A stretch of DNA of 12,722 bases from Polyangiaceae bacterium (lineage in GTDB: Bacteria; Myxococcota; Polyangia; Polyangiales; Polyangiaceae), in the NCBI GenBank assembly GCA_025936205.1, contig JAICTU010000258.1, positions 1 through 12,722 on the forward strand, read 5' to 3'. A program made the position numbers and the translations under genes. Position 1 is the first letter of the stretch, and the number at the start of each line of letters is the position of its first letter. Below, in pieces: positions 1 to 11,959 of the stretch. The notes beneath the pieces are model-generated. The model had not been told where the DNA came from. It did no database searches and saw only the letters and a list, made by a program, of their open reading frames with translations.

Positions 1-863
1 AAGCCTGGGCGCTGGCGGAGACGCGCGCGGCGCGGGGGCGCGCGCTGTGCCTGGCACTGCTGCCGGCGTTGCTCGTGGCGGTGCTGCGCTGGCTGGTGTT
101 TGGTGCGCCGGTGCCGCTCGCGGTGTACGCCAAGCCGTCCGACTTCGAGCACGGGCTGCGCTACGCGTTCGGTGTGCTGGTGCTGGCGGGGCCGGCGCTC
201 TCGTGGCTGGCTCGGGGCGCGTGGAAGCGGATTTCGCGGCGCTGGATGGCCGTGGCGGTCGCGTTCGCCGTGCATGTCGTGATTTTGATCGGGGTCGGCG
301 GGGACTGGATGCCGCTCTGGCGCCTGGCGGTGCCGGTGTTTCCTGGAGTGTTGCTGGTGGGCGCGGCGCTGGCGGAGGTGTCGAGCGGCTGGAGCAATGG
401 GTTGCGCGCCGTGCTGCTGGCGGGGGCAGCGGCGCAGTTGCACGTCGCGCTCGGCAGCGATACGCGCAGCGTGCGGGAGCGCCGGGCGGAGCTGATTGCA
501 TCCGGGAGATCGCTGTTGCAAGGGAGCGAGCGCGTGGGCGGGGTCGACGTCGGCTGGCTCGGCGCGGCGAGCGAGGGGGCGATCGTCGACTTTGCGGGCG
601 TGACGGATCCGCAGGTCGCGTACTTACCGGGCGGGCACACCAGCAAGCGGTTGCCGGTGGATTTTCTGGAGCGTCGCAATGTCGATGCGCTCGTGCTGCG
701 GCGCTGGCCGGCTCGAGAGGGTGATGGAGCGCGCTGGGCGTATGCGGTGGATGCGCGGGTGATGACGTTGCGAGGTGCGCAGAGGTTTGTGCAGGTCGGT
801 ACGATTCCGCTCGCTGGCGCCGGTGAATACGTGGTGCTGCGGCGGCGCTCGGAGCAGCCGTGA
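1..863 (+). CDS. C-terminal part of a GT-C-like polytopic membrane glycosyltransferase (5' end outside window)
   Basis: The frame is open from the left edge, so the N-terminus is missing; 286 residues are visible. The visible part holds several hydrophobic helices, then a positively charged stretch (WKRISRRW), another helix, and the motif GGDWMPLWRLAVP. A GGD(W/F)MP-type loop followed by a last membrane helix is typical of bacterial GT-C-like membrane proteins related to arabinofuranosyl/mannosyl transferases. The last 130 or so residues form a soluble tail containing VDFAGVTDPQVAYLPGG and a DALVLR end; the 'G-x-TDP-x-hA' pattern also recurs in the tails of that family. Such enzymes use polyprenyl-phosphate sugars at the outer face of the inner membrane. 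The acceptor cannot be told. The stop overlaps the next start by 4 bp, suggesting one transcript. The catalytic N-terminal Asp region is not visible, so the assignment rests on the tail only. Confidence 0.6.
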   Translation, partial: AWALAETRAARGRALCLALLPALLVAVLRWLVFGAPVPLAVYAKPSDFEHGLRYAFGVLVLAGPALSWLARGAWKRISRRWMAVAVAFAVHVVILIGVGGDWMPLWRLAVPVFPGVLLVGAALAEVSSGWSNGLRAVLLAGAAAQLHVALGSDTRSVRERRAELIASGRSLLQGSERVGGVDVGWLGAASEGAIVDFAGVTDPQVAYLPGGHTSKRLPVDFLERRNVDALVLRRWPAREGDGARWAYAVDARVMTLRGAQRFVQVGTIPLAGAGEYVVLRRRSEQP

Positions 864-1543
864 AAGCGCCGCGCGGCTTCAGGCAGGCGCGCTGCAGCGG
901 ATGCGGGCTGACGGAGGCGTTGTGCTTGTGCGGCGCCTGGCCGGCGCTGCCCGCGGCGTGCGCCGTGAGCATCGTGATGCCCGGAAGTGAAGCGCGCGCG
1001 GCGTCGAACAGCGCGCGGCTCGCGGCGCTCTGGCTATCGGGCGGCAGCTTGCACGTGCGGGGAGCGGAGGGCTTGGCGGAGCCGGGGGAGCTGCTGGCGC
1101 GGCCCGGCGCGGCGCTGCTGTTTCCTGGCGGCAACACGGCAGCGCCGGCGCCGCGTGGGGTGACGCACTTGATCGTGCCGGATGGCACGTGGTCGCAGGC
1201 CTTGCGCATCGAGCGCCGCTGGTTTGCGGCGGCGGGGCTGCCGCGGCTCGAACTCGAGCCCGGGTGGCCGTCGGCGTACGGATTGCGGCGCACGGCGCGT
1301 GCAGAGAAGGGGCATTTGCGCAGCGGTGCGCGCAGCCAGCTGTGCACGTTCGAGGCCATCGCGATCGCGCTCGGAGTGCTCGGCGAGCGCGAGCTGGCGT
1401 GCACACTACTCGCGCGCTTCGCCGAGTGGGCGCGGCGTGCGCGCTGGCTCAAATCGGGCGGGCCGGTTCCCGGCGGGGCGCGAGAGCCGTTGCCGGAGGT
1501 GCTGCCCGAGCATCCGGCGCTGGCGAGGCTGTCGGCTCGCTAG
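860..1543 (+). CDS. DTW-domain protein, probable tRNA-uridine aminocarboxypropyltransferase
   Basis: This 227-residue protein matches the DTW family. Members such as E. coli TapT (YfiP) transfer the 3-amino-3-carboxypropyl group of S-adenosylmethionine to a tRNA uridine, giving acp3U. An N-terminal Cys cluster (C12, C15, C22, C24, spacing CxxC-x6-CxC) fits the family's zinc site. The name-giving motif is at 108-111 as PDGTW, with Gly replacing the usual Ala (DATW or DGTW). The downstream SQLCTFEAIAIAL segment (159-171) matches the conserved 'S-x-x-T-x-EA-h' helix. The usual PxE/RxN-T segment is present only loosely (PGSEARAASNSARLA, 41-55). The GTG start overlaps the upstream stop (GTGA), so translational coupling is likely. 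The link to the neighbouring glycosyltransferase is probably only positional. Which tRNA position is modified cannot be told. Confidence 0.82.
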   Translation: MKAPRGFRQARCSGCGLTEALCLCGAWPALPAACAVSIVMPGSEARAASNSARLAALWLSGGSLHVRGAEGLAEPGELLARPGAALLFPGGNTAAPAPRGVTHLIVPDGTWSQALRIERRWFAAAGLPRLELEPGWPSAYGLRRTARAEKGHLRSGARSQLCTFEAIAIALGVLGERELACTLLARFAEWARRARWLKSGGPVPGGAREPLPEVLPEHPALARLSAR

Positions 1544-4238: not shown

Positions 4239-5577
4239 TTATGCAGTCGTCGGACGTGCCAGGGCTTGCATGGCACGCTCCAGCGCCAACTCGGCCGCTG
4301 ACGCAATGTCTGGCTGTACGCCGGTGCCTTCCCAGTTGCTGTTCGTGATGGGATTGATGGATCGCCCCCACGGCACCGTCACGTGTAGGGCGAAGTCAAG
4401 GGCGTACGGCGCGGTGGGGTGCGCGCCGCCTGCCGTGATTTCGCCAACGACGATCGCGCGCTGATGCGTTTGCAATGTGCACGCGAGGTCCTCGCCGCCC
4501 GAGAAGGTGCGAGCGCTCGTGAGTACGTAGACGGGTTTTTTGCCCCAAAGCGCTTGCCGGGCAGCTCGCGCCGCGTCCAGAACTCTCGGGTCTCCCCGGT
4601 ATCGCGTCGATAGATACTGCTCAGCAGCACCGCCCTGGCCTCGAAGAAATAGCTCGCGCGATGAAGGCAACCGTTTCGGGCCATCCACCATGGTTGTTGC
4701 GCAGGTCGATGATGACCGCGTCGGCGTCCGCGATCTCGCTCATGCGAGCGCCGATAGCCTCCTCCACGGCCGCGCCGAGCAGCGGGACGAAGCCGTTGAT
4801 GGTGAGGAGCGCCACGTTGAGATCTGCGGTGAGCATCTGGGCAAACTCTGCCGCGTCGGTGATGGTGTCGTAGTCGCCGTGCGCAGCCTTCTCGCTGAGC
4901 CTCGCGACCATCTTCTGGGCTACTTCCTCGAAGATGTAATGCGCTTCGAGCTCGCGGCTCAAGGCACCGATCACGGCGTCTCGACGAGCGGCGTCCACAT
5001 TCCGCTGCGCGAGCTCTTCCTGAGACAGGAACTGGGGTGGCTTCGGGATGGGTCCGATCTCGAACTGAACTACCCGATGCGGTGCGCTCGGCTCGACTTT
5101 GAGATGGACGCGAGCGAATTGGGGGCGGGCGCGCTCTTGGAGCAGGATGGTCAGCGCTGTCGGAGTGCTCTGTTCCACCTGCCTCTCGGTGAAGCCGTTG
5201 GTGCCGAGGCTAAGCCCGTGTTCGCGATCGATGTCTGCGACGTCGGCGCTCGCCGCCGAGCAGGGGAAATGCTGTTCGTGATATGCCAACAAGGTCTCGC
5301 GATTCCCCGAGTTGAACGCCTCGAGCCAGCGTGAGAATTGAGTCCCTGCCGGTGTAGCCGGCGCACTGACGGGGGACGTGTCCGCCACGAGCCCCGGCGT
5401 CGGCGCTGGAGGTGGCTGTGCCGCGGCCGCTTCGGGTGTATGCGCAGGCATGGCCGCCGGCGGGTGGCTGGCACCCCTTTCGGTGCAACCCGCGTTGACG
5501 ATGGCCATCGAGAACAGACCGGGGCCCGCAATGACGGGCTGCGGCATCGGAGTGAGTGTCTGCTTGGGGGTCGGCAT
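4239..5577 (-). pseudogene. S41-family (C-terminal-processing/IRBP-like) peptidase lipoprotein, broken
   Basis: The - strand translation starts at 5577 with a hydrophobic segment ending in VNAGC (Cys 31), a possible lipobox. A Pro/Ala linker and an NTF2-like region follow (FSRWLEAFNSGNRETL, residues 81-96, to about 180). The S41 core is split over three frames. Frame one reaches IIDLRNNHGGWPETVAFIA, then shifts at CGCGCG (4655-4660). Frame two reads from SYFFEARAVLLSSIYRR to GKRFG, then shifts at the G4-C-A6 tract (4536-4546). Frame three reads KKPVYVLTSARTFSGGED, holding the expected nucleophilic Ser, and GVQPDIASAAELALE to the stop. Both breaks fit loss of 1 base (or gain of 2). In addition, ADL (residue 253) runs straight into NVALLTINGF; the SHDKHL-type segment usual there, about 45 residues, is missing. 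This makes decay likelier than sequencing error alone. Confidence 0.8.
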
Positions 5578-5865: not shown

Positions 5866-8800
5866 TTACTGCGCCGGTTGGCAGGTGTAGCGGACCTCCC
5901 AGTCGTGGAGGATGGGCGCGGTCTGCTTGTCCGTGGAGGGGACGAAGTCGATGGTGAGGCGGAGGTGGTCGAGGCCGTTGGAGTAGACGGCGTCGAGGGC
6001 CGCGCCGAGGTCTTTGAAGGCGGGGGTGGCGGGGCTGATGGTGGTGCCGGTGCCTTCGCCGAGGTCGATCAGGGGCGCCGCGTCGAGGGCGGTGGCGGTC
6101 TTGGCGGCTTGTACGTGGAAGAGGAGTTTGCTGTCGCTGGCCGCGGTGAGGTAGTAGTTGAGGAGCTGCCACTCGGGTTGGTAGTCGATCGGGCAGTCGG
6201 CTTCGTATTCGCGTTCGAAGCTCGCAGCCGTGAAGCTGGGCGGCGCCGCGCATTGGAAGTTGACGCAGGCGGTGTTGTCGCAGCAGTCCGCAGGGGAGTT
6301 GCAGCTGTCGCCGGCGGTGCCGCAGGTGCCGCTGATCGCAGCGCAGGTCTTCGCCGGCGGGCCGCTGGCAGGGGTCCAGTTGCTGGGCGCCCGGCAGGCA
6401 GCCGTGGGGTTGCTGCCGCCGCTGCCGCAGCATTCGTCGTTGCTGGAGCAGGAGACGCCGGAGGACTTGCAGGGCGTCGGCACGAGGTAGCCGCGTTCGT
6501 TGACGTAGTGGTTGGCGGTGGTGATCGCGGCCATGTTCTGGCCGGGCACGAGGAAGGCCGGGTGGCTGCGGTCGCTGGAGGTGGCCGTGGTGTCGTCGAT
6601 CGCCGCCATCCAGAGCATGCTCGCCGCGCAGCTGAAGTGGGTGGCGACGCCGGTGCTGGACTTCTGGTTGAATTGGTTGCCGTAGGAGCGCGGGCTGGTG
6701 AACATGACCCAGCGGTAGCCGCCCACGGAGTTGGGCAGCACGGTGGGTTGGTAGGAGCGGTCGGCGTCGCTGGGGTCCTCGGCGTCGTTGAGCTGGGAGA
6801 GCTCGGTGGGGGGGCTGCCCGGGTTCTGGGTGTCGAGCGACATCAGCTTGCCCTTCCAGTAGCCGCGGGTGGTCGGGCTCATGCTGCCGTAGCTGGCCTC
6901 GAAGCAGGCGCGCTTCAAGTCGCTGTTGACGGTGATGCCGTGGCCGGAGCTGGTGGCATCGCAGAATTCGCCCGTCTCCGTCTCGACGTAGAGCAGGCTG
7001 CGGCTGTCGCTCTCGAAGAAGGGCCACTTGATCGGCAGGCCTGCGGCGGCCGAGCTGTAGGTGCTGTAGAGGCGCACCTTGTTGCTGAGCTTCAGCGTGC
7101 TCTGGTCGAACGACATCATCGTCAAGCCGCGGCGCCAGCCGGTGTCGCTCGCGCCCTTGATGGGGTCGGCGTCGGCGTTGACGTAGGCGATCTTGGTGCC
7201 GTCCGGCGAGAACACCGGCACCATCATCGAGGGCATCTGCGTCTCTTTGTAGGCGGTCGCGCTGTTGCTGGCGGTCGTGTAGGTGACCGCCGTGCCCACG
7301 GCGGGCGTCGAGACGTAGAAGACCTTGTCGTTGTTGACGGTGCCGGCGTTGACGTGCACCTCCGCCAGCGGCACCACCTCACCGGTCTCGTCAGCGTCGC
7401 TGCGGCGCTTGAGCAGCCACGGCGTCGAGCTGCTGCCCAGGGCGGTGACGGTGTAGATGCCGTTGTGGCTCTGGGTGCCTTCGTCCTTGACCAGGATCGA
7501 GTCGTTGAGAGCGAGCGTCACGCCGTCGATGGCGGGCAGGGCGCCGTTCCCCGTGCCCTTCAGCGTGGCGGGCGACGGGTTGATCGCCAGGGTGTGCGCG
7601 GGGAGACCCGCGCTGGTCGCGACGCGCACTTCGAAGATCGGGCTGCTGGGCGACTGGGTGAAGGCCATGCCCGGGGTCGCCTTTTCCGCGAAGGTGATGG
7701 CCTGGCTGTTCACCGTGCCCGCGGCCGTCACCTTCCAGGTCCGGCCATGGTTGGTGTTGCCGTCGCTCACGCGCACCTCCGTGCCCACCGCGAACTCGCT
7801 GTTGTTGTCGAAGTCGTAGCGGCGCTTCAGCACCCACTTGGAGGTCGGCGACACCGCGGAGCCGACCGAGCTCACGTAGTAAACTCCGTTCTGCTTCTGC
7901 GCCGTCTCGTCCTTGACCAGCACCGCCGCGCCCGCCTCGAGCGTGACGCCGTCGAGCGTCAGCGTACCGTTGGCAGAGGCGGTGAAGACGCCGTTCGACC
8001 AGCTCGCCCCGGCCAGCGCCGAGCCGGTGGTGGCGAACTGCACGCCCACGCCCGGGCTCTGGGTGTTGACGAAGAAGTAAGGCTTGGCGGCGCCGGCCTT
8101 GCCGAGCAGCACCGCGCTCTGCTGGTTGTTGCTCGTGGCCTGGTCGACGGTGTTGCCCCAGAAGGACGCCCCCTGCAGCACCAGCGAGCCGTCGGGCGAG
8201 ATCGCGCCGTAGGAAAAGCCGCGGCTGTTCTCGCCGTCGCGTTCGTAGTTGTTGTACGGGTCGCCGGCGGTGTTGGCGGGGGCGGTGGAGCTGCCATTGT
8301 CGCTCAGGCCCGTGTAGGTGGGCGCGATGCCTTTGCCGTACGGAGAGAAGAACGGGTCGCCCGAGGAGTCCAAGCCGATCGTGTCCACGCCCTTGCTGGT
8401 GCCGCCGCCGACGACCTGCCAGGCCTGGTTGCCCGACACGACGCGCGCGCCGTTGGCCGAGACCGAATGGCACACGGGGCAGCCCGCGGTGGTGTTGAAG
8501 GGGTCCTGGTTGGGCGCGCTCTTCTGCGAGAGGTCGATGGCGCGCGTCATCGAGCTGTTGGCCGTGCTCGGGTGCGTCACGTTGCCCACCTCGCAGGTTT
8601 GCCCGGGAACGTAGCTGGTCGCGCTGTAGTTGGTGCCTTGCGTACCCGCGTGCAGCGTGCGCCGGTACTGGGTGTAGTAGACCGTGCCGTACAGCGGCTT
8701 GGTCGCGAACTTGACCGGGATCTTCAGCTCGTTCTTGACCTTGTTGGTCGTGCCGTAACGGCGCTGCACGATGATCTCGCCGACGGCGTTGACGCCGGCG

Positions 8801-9927
8801 CTGGCCACACTGCGATCGAACGCACTCCAGATCTCCTGCGGGATTTGCCACGCGGGCGAGCCCGTGGCCAGCGAGCCTTCCTTCGGATCTCCGCTCGTGT
8901 AGATCTTGCTGTACCAGAAGCTGGGTGAGCTCGAGCCCTGAGGGTAGCGCAGCGCCACCTGTACTTCGCTGGCGGCGTTGCCGCCGGTGTCCCACTGCAC
9001 GAGCGGCGCCTGGAGGTCGAGCGGGAAGACGGTGTTCTTGTAGGGGTACAGCGTCTTGCCGCTGTCGGCAGCCAACCCGGCGCCGGCAAACTCGCTGATC
9101 AGGCTGGCGCTGGCCGCGCCGTTGACGTCGATCTTCACCACCACGTCGACCAGCGCGCTGCTGCTGTCGGCGGAGCTCTTCGCCGTGACCACGATCGGCG
9201 ACGCGATGCCGGAGAAGGGCGTCAGCTTGCCGGTGCTGTCCAGCACGGCGCGGTCATAGGCGTCGATCGTCCAGCTCGGCTGAATCGGGGCGCCGCCCGT
9301 GCACGTGCCGCTGAAGGAGAGCGAGGCGGGGGTCGCCGTGATGGCTCCGTTCGCCGCGATGCCGGTGATCGTGAACATGGAGGTCGAGGGCGAGATCGCG
9401 ATGTCGTCGCAGTGACCCCCCGACCCGCTCCCGGGCAGGGTCAGTCCGGTGGAGTCGGCTTTCAAGTCCTCGTCCACGAGCAGCCCGTCCGGGGTGTCGT
9501 TGACCAGCATGCAGCGCGGATCGCACAAGTTCTTGCAGTCTTTGCTCGTGGACAGGGCTTGCAGACGCAGGCCCGAGGCGGTCGTGGTGGCGGTCTCGAC
9601 CTGTTGCTCAGCCTGGCACTCGCTCCACACACCAGCGTTGCAGCTGCGCGCGCCCATCGAGCAGATGGCGTAGTCTCCGCGCAGCTCGTGTACGCTGCCG
9701 CAGGCGATGCGAGCGCCCTCGTCCGAGCAGGGGCAGTCGGTCGAGGTCGGCTCGGCGCAGGGATCCTGCGCGGAGCCCGTCTGGAGCCACTGCGCGTCTC
9801 CGTTGCCGTCGAGGGAAGCGGGCTCGGGCGGCTCGCCCTGCGAGCAGCCGCTGAACAGAGCCACCAGTAGGGGACTGAAACTGAGCGACGTTCGGCGAAA
9901 GCTGGGGCGTCTGGGTGGCGAGAACAT
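5866..9927 (-). CDS. Large myxobacterial-type lipoprotein with one heme-c motif, beta-propeller blades and inserted phage-tail-fibre-type repeats
   Basis: The 1353-residue protein starts with Arg-rich residues and a hydrophobic run ending in the lipobox LFSGC (Cys 28). A Cys-rich stretch follows (57-104; CSMGARSCNAGVWSEC resembles 'C-x-G-x-x-x-C-x-x-G-x-W-x-x-C' modules of myxobacterial surface proteins). An Ig-like (Big2-type) region lies at about 195-270. YPYKNTVFPLDLQAPLVQW (294-312) and CPVCHSVSANGARV (483-496; heme site CxxCH at 483-487) lead into SPDG propeller blades at 577-580 and 907-910. SYQPTV and WVMFTSPRSYGN (1058-1084) follow, then two CC-containing modules (1153-1226). A C-terminal beta-rich domain ends at the stop. 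I recall this order from Polyangiaceae lipoproteins. Residues about 629-888 are an insertion of two repeats (see separate entries). Probably located at the outer membrane or cell surface; role unknown. It is divergent from an octaheme cytochrome gene. Confidence 0.85.
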   Translation of the reverse strand: MFSPPRRPSFRRTSLSFSPLLVALFSGCSQGEPPEPASLDGNGDAQWLQTGSAQDPCAEPTSTDCPCSDEGARIACGSVHELRGDYAICSMGARSCNAGVWSECQAEQQVETATTTASGLRLQALSTSKDCKNLCDPRCMLVNDTPDGLLVDEDLKADSTGLTLPGSGSGGHCDDIAISPSTSMFTITGIAANGAITATPASLSFSGTCTGGAPIQPSWTIDAYDRAVLDSTGKLTPFSGIASPIVVTAKSSADSSSALVDVVVKIDVNGAASASLISEFAGAGLAADSGKTLYPYKNTVFPLDLQAPLVQWDTGGNAASEVQVALRYPQGSSSPSFWYSKIYTSGDPKEGSLATGSPAWQIPQEIWSAFDRSVASAGVNAVGEIIVQRRYGTTNKVKNELKIPVKFATKPLYGTVYYTQYRRTLHAGTQGTNYSATSYVPGQTCEVGNVTHPSTANSSMTRAIDLSQKSAPNQDPFNTTAGCPVCHSVSANGARVVSGNQAWQVVGGGTSKGVDTIGLDSSGDPFFSPYGKGIAPTYTGLSDNGSSTAPANTAGDPYNNYERDGENSRGFSYGAISPDGSLVLQGASFWGNTVDQATSNNQQSAVLLGKAGAAKPYFFVNTQSPGVGVQFATTGSALAGASWSNGVFTASANGTLTLDGVTLEAGAAVLVKDETAQKQNGVYYVSSVGSAVSPTSKWVLKRRYDFDNNSEFAVGTEVRVSDGNTNHGRTWKVTAAGTVNSQAITFAEKATPGMAFTQSPSSPIFEVRVATSAGLPAHTLAINPSPATLKGTGNGALPAIDGVTLALNDSILVKDEGTQSHNGIYTVTALGSSSTPWLLKRRSDADETGEVVPLAEVHVNAGTVNNDKVFYVSTPAVGTAVTYTTASNSATAYKETQMPSMMVPVFSPDGTKIAYVNADADPIKGASDTGWRRGLTMMSFDQSTLKLSNKVRLYSTYSSAAAGLPIKWPFFESDSRSLLYVETETGEFCDATSSGHGITVNSDLKRACFEASYGSMSPTTRGYWKGKLMSLDTQNPGSPPTELSQLNDAEDPSDADRSYQPTVLPNSVGGYRWVMFTSPRSYGNQFNQKSSTGVATHFSCAASMLWMAAIDDTTATSSDRSHPAFLVPGQNMAAITTANHYVNERGYLVPTPCKSSGVSCSSNDECCGSGGSNPTAACRAPSNWTPASGPPAKTCAAISGTCGTAGDSCNSPADCCDNTACVNFQCAAPPSFTAASFEREYEADCPIDYQPEWQLLNYYLTAASDSKLLFHVQAAKTATALDAAPLIDLGEGTGTTISPATPAFKDLGAALDAVYSNGLDHLRLTIDFVPSTDKQTAPILHDWEVRYTCQPAQ
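6250..6471 (-). repeat. Two Cys-rich 'CC' modules within the lipoprotein
   Basis: Residues 1153-1178 (CKSSGVSCSSNDECCGS...C) and 1195-1226 (CAAISGTCGTAGDSC...DCC...C...C) share the pattern C-x6-C or similar, then C/D-x-x-CC, then C. Such modules are common in myxobacterial secreted proteins and look disulfide-bonded, like EB/knottin-type folds. They separate the propeller region from the C-terminal domain and are probably spacers or binding modules. Confidence 0.5.
7264..7632 (-). repeat. Phage-tail-fibre-type repeat, copy B (residues about 766-888)
   Basis: The segment begins FEVRVATSAGLPAHTL and continues AIDGVTLALNDSILVKDEG, HNGIYTVTALG, WLLKRRSDADETGE and a GTVNNDKVF turn. The order 'DGV-h-x-x-x-D-x-hLVKD-x-x-x-x-x-NGIY-x-V' then 'R-x-x-DAD' then 'G-T-x-N-x-D' matches a repeat I know from tailed-phage tail fibres. 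It is followed directly by the propeller blade VPVFSPDG. Confidence 0.7.
7690..8040 (-). repeat. Phage-tail-fibre-type repeat, copy A (residues about 630-746)
   Basis: QFATTGSALAGASWSNGVF leads into TLTLDGVTLEAGAAVLVKDE, QNGVYYVSSVG, WVLKRRYDFDNNSE and DGNTNHGRTWKVT. It aligns with copy B at DGVTL, LVKDE, NG(V/I)Y, W(V/L)LKRR and the following D-x-D. The copies are clearly diverged, so this is not a recent tandem duplication. Confidence 0.7.
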
Positions 9928-9997: not shown

Positions 9998-11959
9998 GTG
10001 GGGCGACAAAACATTGTCAGGACGGGGCAGCGCGGGGTGAGCGCTGGAGCGGGCGCATCGGGGAGTTGCGCCCCTTCTCCCGGTTCTGCGCACCTGCGCA
10101 CCCTGGCTGCGCTGGCGCTCTGCGCGTGCAGCGCGGCGCAACCGGCGCACCTCTCGAGAGCAAGAGAGGCGGTCCGGCGCGTGCAGAGCAACGTCACGCG
10201 CGAGGACTACGTGGGCTCGGCCAGCTGCGAGCCGTGCCATGGGGCGATCTACCAGTCCTGGCAGAGGTCGCCGATGCATCGCATGACGCGCCCCTCCGGG
10301 TCCGACCTCCGCGCGCATTTTGACGGCACGGAGTTTTACCTCGGCCGCGATACGGCGCGCGTCGAGCAGCGCGGTGGGGAGCGCTTTGTCGAGCTGCACG
10401 GGTCGGGCGCTGCGCGGCGCTATCGGGTGACCAAGGTGATCGGCGGGCGGCACCGCGAGGACTTCGTCGGTGTGGAGCTGAGCGGCGGCGGCTCGGAGCA
10501 GCTCGAAGAAGATCCGGAGAGCCCGAGTGCCCGCGAGGCAGCCAACGGCCGCGAGCAGGTGCTGCCGCTGTCGTGGGTGTACGCGACGTCGTCGTGGCGC
10601 TACAAAGGGTACTCGGTGATGCTGCCCGAGCGGCCCGCGCTGCGCGCTGGCCCCGTCTGGGCCGCGACCTGCATCGGTTGCCACAACACGCTGCCGTACC
10701 TGACGCTCGCGTACGATGATCTGCTGGGTCCGTCGGCGCCGGCCTATCAGGGCTCGGTGCACGATCGCTTGCTGCCCAGCGAGCGGCTGTGGCCGGTGCA
10801 CGTGAAGGATGAGGCGGGGCTGAAGCAGGCGGTGGCGCTGGAGATCGAGCACCTCGGCGGCCCATCGAGGGCCGCTGCGGAACACTCATCGCTGGAGCGT
10901 GTGCTCGGGGCGGCCATCTCGACCACGCGCCACGGGCTCGGCGCCGAGCATCTCGTGGAGCTCGGCGTCGGCTGTGAGTCGTGCCACTACGGAGCGCGCG
11001 AGCACCTGGCGGACCCCAGCGTGCGGCCGAGCTTCGGCGTCGAGAGCTCGCTGTTCGAGATCGCGCCGCCCGCCGAGCCGGCGCGCGCCGAGCAGATCAA
11101 CCGCACCTGCGCGCATTGCCACTCGGTGCTGCTCAGCTCGTATCCCTGGACCTGGGAGGGCAAGCGGCGGCGCGACCCGGTGCCGGGTGGCAGCTCCACC
11201 AACTCGGGGGAGGGGCGCGATTTCTTGCTGGGCGGCTGTGCGCGCGAGCTCGCTTGCAGCAGCTGCCATGATCCGCACGCGGAGGATTCCGCGGACCGGC
11301 TCGCGCAGCTCGTGACCCCGCGAGGCAATGCGCTCTGCGTCGGTTGCCACCAGCAGTACGGATCGCAGGCAGCGCTCACCGAGCACACGCATCACCCGGC
11401 GGGCTCGGCGGGCAGCGCGTGCGTGGAGTGCCACATGCCGCGCAAGAACATGGGGCTCGACTACCGGCTGACCCGCTATCATCGCATCGGCTCGCCCACG
11501 GATCCCGAGCGCGTACTCGGCGATCGGCCGCTGGAGTGCGCGCTGTGCCACGCCGATCGCAGCGTCGAGTCGCTGACCGCCGACATGGAGCGCTGGTGGC
11601 GGAAGAGCTACCCGCGCGAGGCGCTGCGCGAGCTGTACGGCAATGACCTGAGCGCGAACACGCTGTCGAGCACGCTGCAGCGAGGCAAGCCGCACGAGCA
11701 GGCGGTGGCCATCGCGACCTTCGGCGACCAGCGCGTGCAGAGCGCGCTGCCCGAGCTCCTGCCGCAGCTCACGCACCAGTACCCGCTGGTGCGCTTTTAT
11801 ACCAAGGCGGCGATCGAGCGCATCACCGGGCAGCCCTTGCCCGTGGATGTGAACGGCTCCGGCGCCGAGATCCGCGCGGCGGCAAACAGCTGGTGGGCAG
11901 CGCGCAAGGGAGGCAACACAACTCGGCTTGCGCCGATGCCGAGTCGTCCCTCAGACTAG
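9998..11959 (+). CDS. Octaheme c-type cytochrome, probable lipoprotein, with HEAT-like C-terminus
   Basis: The 653-residue protein carries eight CxxCH heme-c sites: residues 77-81, 225-229, 326-330, 371-375, 420-424, 447-451, 475-479 and 514-518. The opening YVGSASCEPCHGAIYQSW is typical of the cytochrome c554-like multiheme superfamily. A hydrophobic run ending LALCAC (Cys 44) is a plausible lipobox, so the protein would sit in the envelope; hemes are attached outside the cytoplasm by the Ccm/Ccs machinery. The gap between hemes 1 and 2 is about 145 residues, while hemes 3-8 are close together. Residues about 565-612 (HEQAVAIATFGDQRVQSALP...LVRFYTKAAIERITG) look HEAT-like. The GTG at 9998 leaves a long pre-signal segment; GTG at 10037 (residue 14) is an alternative start. 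It is likely an electron-transfer protein or a reductase of unknown substrate. It is divergent from the heme-motif lipoprotein. Confidence 0.88.
   Translation: MGRQNIVRTGQRGVSAGAGASGSCAPSPGSAHLRTLAALALCACSAAQPAHLSRAREAVRRVQSNVTREDYVGSASCEPCHGAIYQSWQRSPMHRMTRPSGSDLRAHFDGTEFYLGRDTARVEQRGGERFVELHGSGAARRYRVTKVIGGRHREDFVGVELSGGGSEQLEEDPESPSAREAANGREQVLPLSWVYATSSWRYKGYSVMLPERPALRAGPVWAATCIGCHNTLPYLTLAYDDLLGPSAPAYQGSVHDRLLPSERLWPVHVKDEAGLKQAVALEIEHLGGPSRAAAEHSSLERVLGAAISTTRHGLGAEHLVELGVGCESCHYGAREHLADPSVRPSFGVESSLFEIAPPAEPARAEQINRTCAHCHSVLLSSYPWTWEGKRRRDPVPGGSSTNSGEGRDFLLGGCARELACSSCHDPHAEDSADRLAQLVTPRGNALCVGCHQQYGSQAALTEHTHHPAGSAGSACVECHMPRKNMGLDYRLTRYHRIGSPTDPERVLGDRPLECALCHADRSVESLTADMERWWRKSYPREALRELYGNDLSANTLSSTLQRGKPHEQAVAIATFGDQRVQSALPELLPQLTHQYPLVRFYTKAAIERITGQPLPVDVNGSGAEIRAAANSWWAARKGGNTTRLAPMPSRPSD

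What the first reader, a model, noticed from the sequence alone, without database searches (positions are those of the whole stretch)
7264..8040. Phage-tail-fibre-type repeats inserted inside a heme-motif lipoprotein's beta-propeller region
Residues about 629-888 of the 1353-residue lipoprotein are two diverged copies of a module ('DGVTL...LVKDE...NG(V/I)Y...W(V/L)LKRR...D-x-D'). I know this module mainly from tailed-phage tail fibres. The flanks (SPDG blades at 577-580 and 907-910) match the usual myxobacterial lipoprotein, which in my recollection runs from one blade to the next with only a short link. A phage adhesion module has apparently been grafted into a bacterial surface protein without breaking the frame, suggesting a surface-exposed binding or adhesion role.
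Basis: partly seen in the sequence, partly recalled or inferred. Interest (0 to 1): 0.7.

Follow-up and report, generated by a model that had tools for sequence, protein, structure and literature searches.

The report
Phage-type module in propeller display slot
A bacterial lipoprotein carries two copies of a phage tail-fibre domain in one loop of its propeller, and its relatives appear to stack up to a dozen copies of that domain inside one another like Russian dolls.

Summary

It is not a private graft. Of 120 family proteins (window included) the slot is empty in 8, holds one module in 17, two in 27 (the window among them), nested towers in 20; 25 bear an F5/8 domain (inside the module in the one checked) and 23 bear PA14 (in the slot in the two checked).

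The towers are the surprise. The module has an N half (about 69 aa) and a C half (about 58 aa). Towers read N C, then N×k followed by C×k (k = 5, 6, 7, 8, 10, 12), equal in 20 of 20 proteins taken as complete. A model of five levels pairs N halves with their mirror-image C halves, so copies appear inserted inside copies. Slot length is 45 + 127 aa per module (r = 0.999). The deepest published nesting I found is six levels (RpoC2 Si3).

Likely role, inferred: an adjustable surface binding stalk. The window protein is the un-nested two-module form.

The parts
5866..9927 (-). Whole gene: 1353-aa predicted lipoprotein (Cys28 invariant in the 18 sequences aligned), CxxCH motif, TolB-like propeller, Cys-rich C-terminal part
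   Evidence: ORF; alignment of 18 sequences; homologs
8467..8481 (-). CPVCH (residues 483-487), c-type haem-binding motif; both Cys and the His invariant in 18 of 18 aligned sequences
6472..8547 (-). Stretch (residues 461-1152) over which the TolB propeller fold is aligned, insert included
8188..8202 (-). ISPDG blade motif before the slot (residues 576-580)
7858..8043 (-). Module 1, N half (residues 629-690: VQFATT...DGVTL...LVKDE...NGVYYV)
   Evidence: half-profile string; motif positions; PHROGs
7663..7839 (-). Module 1, C half (residues 697-755: KWVLKRR...AITFAEK...)
7432..7629 (-). Module 2, N half (residues 767-832: VRVATS...DGVTL...LVKDE...NGIYTV)
7243..7422 (-). Module 2, C half (residues 836-895: PWLLKRR...VTYTTAS...). 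The short loop before it (about 828-835) corresponds to the site that hosts further copies in relatives; it is unoccupied here
   Evidence: comparison by eye with P0027 and P0005
7198..7212 (-). FSPDG blade motif after the slot (residues 906-910)
9998..11959 (+). Divergently transcribed neighbour: 653-aa multihaem cytochrome c-like ORF
   Evidence: Pfam Cytochrome_C7 1.8e-8, Paired_CXXCH_1 5.8e-8

Best explanation
The insert is a display cassette. A TolB-like propeller lipoprotein offers one loop as a variable slot. In the window's lineage the slot holds a phage tail-fibre-type module made of an N half and a C half that together fold as one small beta domain. The loop between the two halves is a tolerated insertion site. 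Some relatives carry an F5/8 discoidin domain there; in others a further copy of the module sits there, and inside that another, to at least 12 levels. The chain then climbs through all the N halves and returns through all the C halves, so each level is closed by its mirror partner, both chain ends stay at the propeller, and the innermost module is at the tip. This gives a stalk whose length is set by copy number, carrying a binding surface at its tip. The window protein has two modules side by side with both loops empty. Shown: module identity, position in the propeller, slot states, equal N and C counts, length law. Shown by prediction only: mirror pairing. Inferred: surface exposure, stalk shape, ligand or glycan binding.
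For: Phage module; solved relatives 9efk orf22 (profile E 3e-33) and 9nx3 capsid decoration protein (2.2e-5). In the propeller. Slot states on the tree: (12 state changes against a shuffled mean of 75.4). PA14 inside the slot of P0097 and P0120, the two tested. F5/8 at 685-800 of P0043, between its halves. Equal counts: 13 of 13 complete towers and 7 of 7. Slot length = 45.4 + 127.4 x modules, r 0.999, 60 of the 72 eligible rows; the intercept is 45.1 even without the empty rows. Model of five levels (pLDDT 86.1, pTM 0.65): in 10 of the 32 rows listed one small target spans residues of more than one level, and all 10 run from an N unit to its mirror C unit (levels 8, 9 and 11; level 10 is not sampled; unit borders). 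PHROGs match best in the innermost contiguous N-C for 8 of 8 families in P0027 and 6 of 10 in P0121. N and C similarity matrices agree better in mirror than in parallel order in 15 of 18 towers; permutation p at or below 0.05 in 10 of 18 against 1 of 18.
Against: The mirror signal is modest: 8 of 18 towers not significant, 3 of 18 favour parallel order. Between proteins mirrored order wins in 120 of 153 pairs with median r 0.21 against 0.11; without the two outermost levels in 104 of 153, permutation p at or below 0.05 in 46 of 153; for pairs of unequal depth 92 of 120 and 26 of 120. The eight pairs (r 0.50-0.86) were chosen by me. In P0027 against P0014 level 4 N matches level 6 while level 4 C matches level 4, so halves may be lost separately and re-pair. 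Foldseek found no significant PDB match for the tower model (best E 0.16). Six one-sided proteins were set aside as fragments (P0070, P0072, P0076, P0080, P0083, P0089); that their contigs end there was not checked. Outside the family many strings with NN are not balanced as read. No ligand or surface exposure is shown.
Confidence: 0.66

Rival explanations
1. The N repeats and the C repeats are two ordinary tandem arrays that expanded independently and form two separate repeat stacks; equal numbers are chance or a packing rule, not nesting.
For: Units within each array are alike (mean identity 0.42-0.60); N and C level maps disagree for P0027 against P0014; the mirror signal between proteins is weak.
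Against: 20 of 20 complete towers are equal at six different depths; the innermost N-C pair is a contiguous phage-type module; in P0043 an F5/8 domain splits a single module at the same loop; ten of ten level-crossing structural alignments join mirror partners; a protein outside the family reads NNNCCNCCNNCC, a balanced branched string (P0161).
Confidence: 0.12
2. A recent graft of a phage adhesion module into this one protein.
For: Clear phage similarity; module 2 is 41% and 38% identical to two phage copies and 34% to module 1 (31% and 33% to two plasmid-borne copies, 46% to the P0033 module).
Against: 89 of 120 family proteins carry the module, on one side of a branch with support 99; insert composition matches the gene.
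Confidence: 0.05
3. The module is a general surface domain shared by bacteria, phages and giant viruses, and moved from cells to phages rather than the reverse.
For: Present in bacterial proteins of other kinds and in giant-virus proteins among the fold matches; tower forms seen here only outside the viral loci sampled.
Confidence: 0.3
4. The slot content is a spacer that only sets distance, for example placing the haem-bearing part relative to a partner such as the neighbouring multihaem cytochrome, with no ligand binding of its own.
For: Invariant CxxCH, divergent multihaem cytochrome gene, strict length law.
Against: Other occupants (PA14, F5/8 discoidin) belong to families usually described as ligand or carbohydrate binding (recalled).
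Confidence: 0.25

Closest known systems
Phage tail-fibre / head-decoration module (phrog_30390, phrog_2647, phrog_11518; solved in 9efk orf22 residues 261-385 and 9nx3)
   Same: Same sequence family over the N plus C module. Five listed BFVD matches of the tower model have rmsd 2.3-2.6 over 130-136 columns, e.g. the S-CAM9 tail fibre at 2.3 over 136; I infer that they cover the innermost level, the only contiguous N-C in that model.
   Different: In 86 viral loci read (80 kept of 588 confirmed stretches, plus 6) no nested string was seen, only NC, NCN or N. Here it is set into a bacterial propeller and, in relatives, apparently into itself.
Nested insertions of RNA polymerase RpoC2 Si3 in cyanobacteria (PMC13114784, passages read)
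   Same: Recursive A1-B1-C-B2-A2 architecture; a domain is both guest and host.
   Different: Six levels with branching reported there; here linear towers of one module type up to 12 levels, equal counts, variable depth. A shared fold is not shown (Si3 structure 8emb only at Foldseek E 4.1).
TolB propeller
   Different: 13-16% identity, lipoprotein form, CxxCH motif, large display slot; no evidence of a Tol-Pal role.
F5/8 type C (discoidin) and PA14 domains
   Same: Found in the slot of the relatives checked: P0043 (F5/8), P0097 and P0120 (PA14).
   Different: No Pfam match to either in the window protein.

Membership tests
Phage tail-fibre/decoration module | Profile match over both halves | tested here: met
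   (two stretches for each of the 9 PHROGs hit)
Phage tail-fibre/decoration module | Fold of the contiguous module | tested here: inconclusive
   Met for the tower model of relative L004 (five BFVD rows at rmsd 2.3-2.6), but the region matched is inferred and the window's own modules were not searched alone
Phage tail-fibre/decoration module | Part of a virion | tested here: inconclusive
   Pfam scan of ten neighbouring ORFs: three with matches (DTW, S41 peptidase, cytochrome), none of a phage; seven without any match
TolB-like propeller | Propeller fold | tested here: met
TolB-like propeller | Tol-Pal function | not testable with these tools
c-type cytochrome | CxxCH motif | tested here: met
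c-type cytochrome | Covalent haem | not testable with these tools
Nested self-insertion architecture | A copy inserted between the halves of another copy, in the window protein | tested here: not met
   Window string is NCNC
Nested self-insertion architecture | The same in its relatives | tested here: met
   Equal N and C counts in 20 of 20 complete towers; mirror pairing in the predicted model only
RpoC2 Si3 hybrid motif | Sandwich-barrel hybrid motif fold | tested here: inconclusive
   8emb_F listed at E 4.1 only

The most novel reading that the evidence does not exclude
A single phage-type module has become a self-nesting building block: copies are inserted into copies at one fixed loop, giving proteins whose domain halves read as balanced brackets (N^k C^k up to k = 12, and a branched NNNCCNCCNNCC in another protein family), i.e. 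the deepest recursive domain insertion I could find described, used to build stalks of adjustable length from a propeller base.
Probability: 0.68. Interest if true: 0.85.

Novelty: new variant of a known kind. Interest (0 to 1): 0.74.

Why it matters
Repeat proteins normally grow by adding whole units end to end. Here each added level costs two separated halves, yet every tower taken as complete is balanced, so depth can change while both chain ends stay fixed. That poses testable questions: how such proteins fold during secretion, how a genome adds matching halves, and whether depth tunes reach. It also shows a phage-type module reused by bacteria as one of several occupants of one display slot.

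Tried and rejected
No whole genome is held for the window, so paralogues in its own genome could not be counted. Pfam and NCBIfam gave no match to the module that reaches a curated cut-off. A scan of genome contigs with the family gave five loci; in 106 of 108 genomes of that family something matches the scaffold profile, mostly far weaker than the loci with modules. Foldseek of the tower model against the PDB gave nothing significant, and the solved relatives 9efk and 9nx3 are not among the 50 rows listed there or the 32. Searches for the paper behind 9efk and for Si3 with hybrid motifs found none. Literature searches for nested or self-inserted domains turned up one relevant paper, PMC13114784, of which I read passages only; the lists (12 of 219; 5 of 12) were cut, and the library holds open-licence papers only. 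A viral scan aimed at N arrays found six loci, all with a single NC. I considered assembly artefact for the towers and think it unlikely: complete open frames of 1861-2759 aa, depth differs between sources, counts stay equal, and repeat DNA in L004 is at most 79% identical; no reads were checked. Unit identities did not show clearly whether module 2 of the two-module form is the host of the towers: its C half is nearest to the outermost C (0.49) but its N half is not nearest to the outermost N. Rows dropped: 7 proteins taken as fragments and then P0118 and P0119 before the tree; P0124 and P0125 from the mirror test, because one extra short C hit made them 10/11 there, although read them as balanced; P0073 counts one N too few. 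F5/8 and PA14 labels in the tree come from the precomputed Pfam column. Of 84 proteins outside the family, seven have a cluster with both NN and CC; of these strings only that of P0161 is balanced as read, one C of P0132 was found by eye in the sequence, and other clusters (NNCNC 5, NNCNNC 4, lone N 156) are unbalanced, by missed weak C halves or for real. In some searches only the listed rows were seen.

Full report
What is there. The minus-strand ORF 5866-9927 encodes a 1353-aa predicted lipoprotein. PHROGs profiles of phage virion proteins match both copies, best E 2e-30, among them 'head decoration' and 'tail fiber protein'; Pfam and NCBIfam gave nothing above a curated cut-off. Against phage genomes tblastn finds 20 records, 18 of them annotated as some kind of tail fibre at the match; on plasmids 15 records match, 11 of them Aeromonas tail-fibre genes and one a head-decoration gene. 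Two solved proteins are relatives: 9efk orf22 (E 3e-33) and 9nx3 capsid decoration protein (E 2.2e-5).

Who else has it. The protein search listed 120 of 142 matches, the window's own protein included, largely from metagenomes; those named are Polyangiaceae or Myxococcota, and one (P0026) is labelled Pseudomonadota. With nine tower proteins found later there were 129, of which 120 entered a scaffold tree built without the slot. States: empty 8, PA14-bearing 23, one module 17, F5/8-bearing 25, two modules 27, towers 20. Module-bearing rows (89, F5/8 rows included) and the rest (31) are separated by a branch with support 99; the window lies in a clade of 14 two-module rows (97). P0059, one module without F5/8, lies inside the F5/8 clade, so the guest can be lost. 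PA14 lies in the slot itself in P0097 and P0120 and F5/8 between the halves in P0043; for the other rows of those classes I infer it. The insert is therefore an old occupant of a variable slot, not a private graft.

The towers. Separate profiles of the N half (52 positions) and C half (58 positions) read each protein as a string. P0001 reads NCNC. The complete long proteins read NC, then N x k, then C x k: k = 5 (P0027), 6 (P0029), 7 (six proteins), 8 (three), 10 (P0122), 12 (P0121), and 10 in seven more; 20 of 20 are balanced. Six one-sided proteins were set aside as fragments without checking the contig ends. Two towers come from named MAGs: L003 and L004, Polyangiaceae, ORFs of 2531 and 2759 aa; the genome of L004 also has a one-module copy, L002. 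Two database proteins that report the same longest-contig length, P0076 (NC then 11 N) and P0070 (N then 12 C), would add to 12 and 12 but were not joined. Slot length over 60 of 72 eligible rows is 45.4 + 127.4 aa per module, r 0.999.

Beyond the family. Among 84 proteins outside it the same module appears mainly as N, NC or tandem NC clusters; seven have a cluster with both NN and CC, e.g. NNNCCNCCNNCC in P0161 and four N then two detected C in P0136 from a Verrucomicrobiia MAG. Many other strings are unbalanced as read. In the viral sample none was nested: the 80 loci gave 82 ORFs reading NC, NCN or N, and six more loci read NC. In the class of G002, 14 of 317 genomes have the module at all.

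How it most likely works. The propeller is the base near the membrane; the slot is a display position filled by modules of kinds that usually bind ligands (F5/8, PA14: recalled, not tested). The N/C loop of the module lets a guest be carried at its tip. In towers the guest is another module, so reach grows by one domain per level while both ends remain at the base. In the window the two modules stand side by side. The CxxCH motif is invariant and a multihaem cytochrome gene is divergently transcribed next door, so an electron-transfer setting is possible; I have no test of it.

Novelty. Recursive domain insertion is known; the 2026 survey PMC13114784 (passages read) reports six levels in cyanobacterial RpoC2 as its complex example. 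I found no report of same-module towers with equal halves or of 12 levels in the searches named under Tried and rejected. The window protein alone would be a new member of a family I found no name for; the family makes it a new variant of a known kind.

Noticed in passing
window 9998-11959 (+): 653-aa ORF with Cytochrome_C7 and Paired_CXXCH matches, divergent from the lipoprotein gene; weak MtrC/MtrF-like match.
   Followed up: partly
window 4621-5577 (-): ORF with the N-terminal part of an S41 peptidase; only the first third of the peptidase domain is matched in this frame, below its cut-off.
   Followed up: no
window 860-1543 (+): DTW-domain ORF (Pfam E 5e-22).
   Followed up: no
P0131, P0132, P0135, P0138, P0161, P0162 (database proteins): A second group of proteins, partly with beta-helix and leishmanolysin-type Pfam domains, carries nested-looking strings of the same module.
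   Followed up: partly
Giant-virus proteins (Marseillevirus LCMAC201, Indivirus, Pithovirus LCPAC401) are among the fold matches of the tower model.
   Followed up: no
window 6247-6327 (-): Cys-rich segment with a sub-threshold Dickkopf_N match (E 0.075), perhaps the source of the name 'dickkopf-related protein' given to two listed relatives.
   Followed up: no
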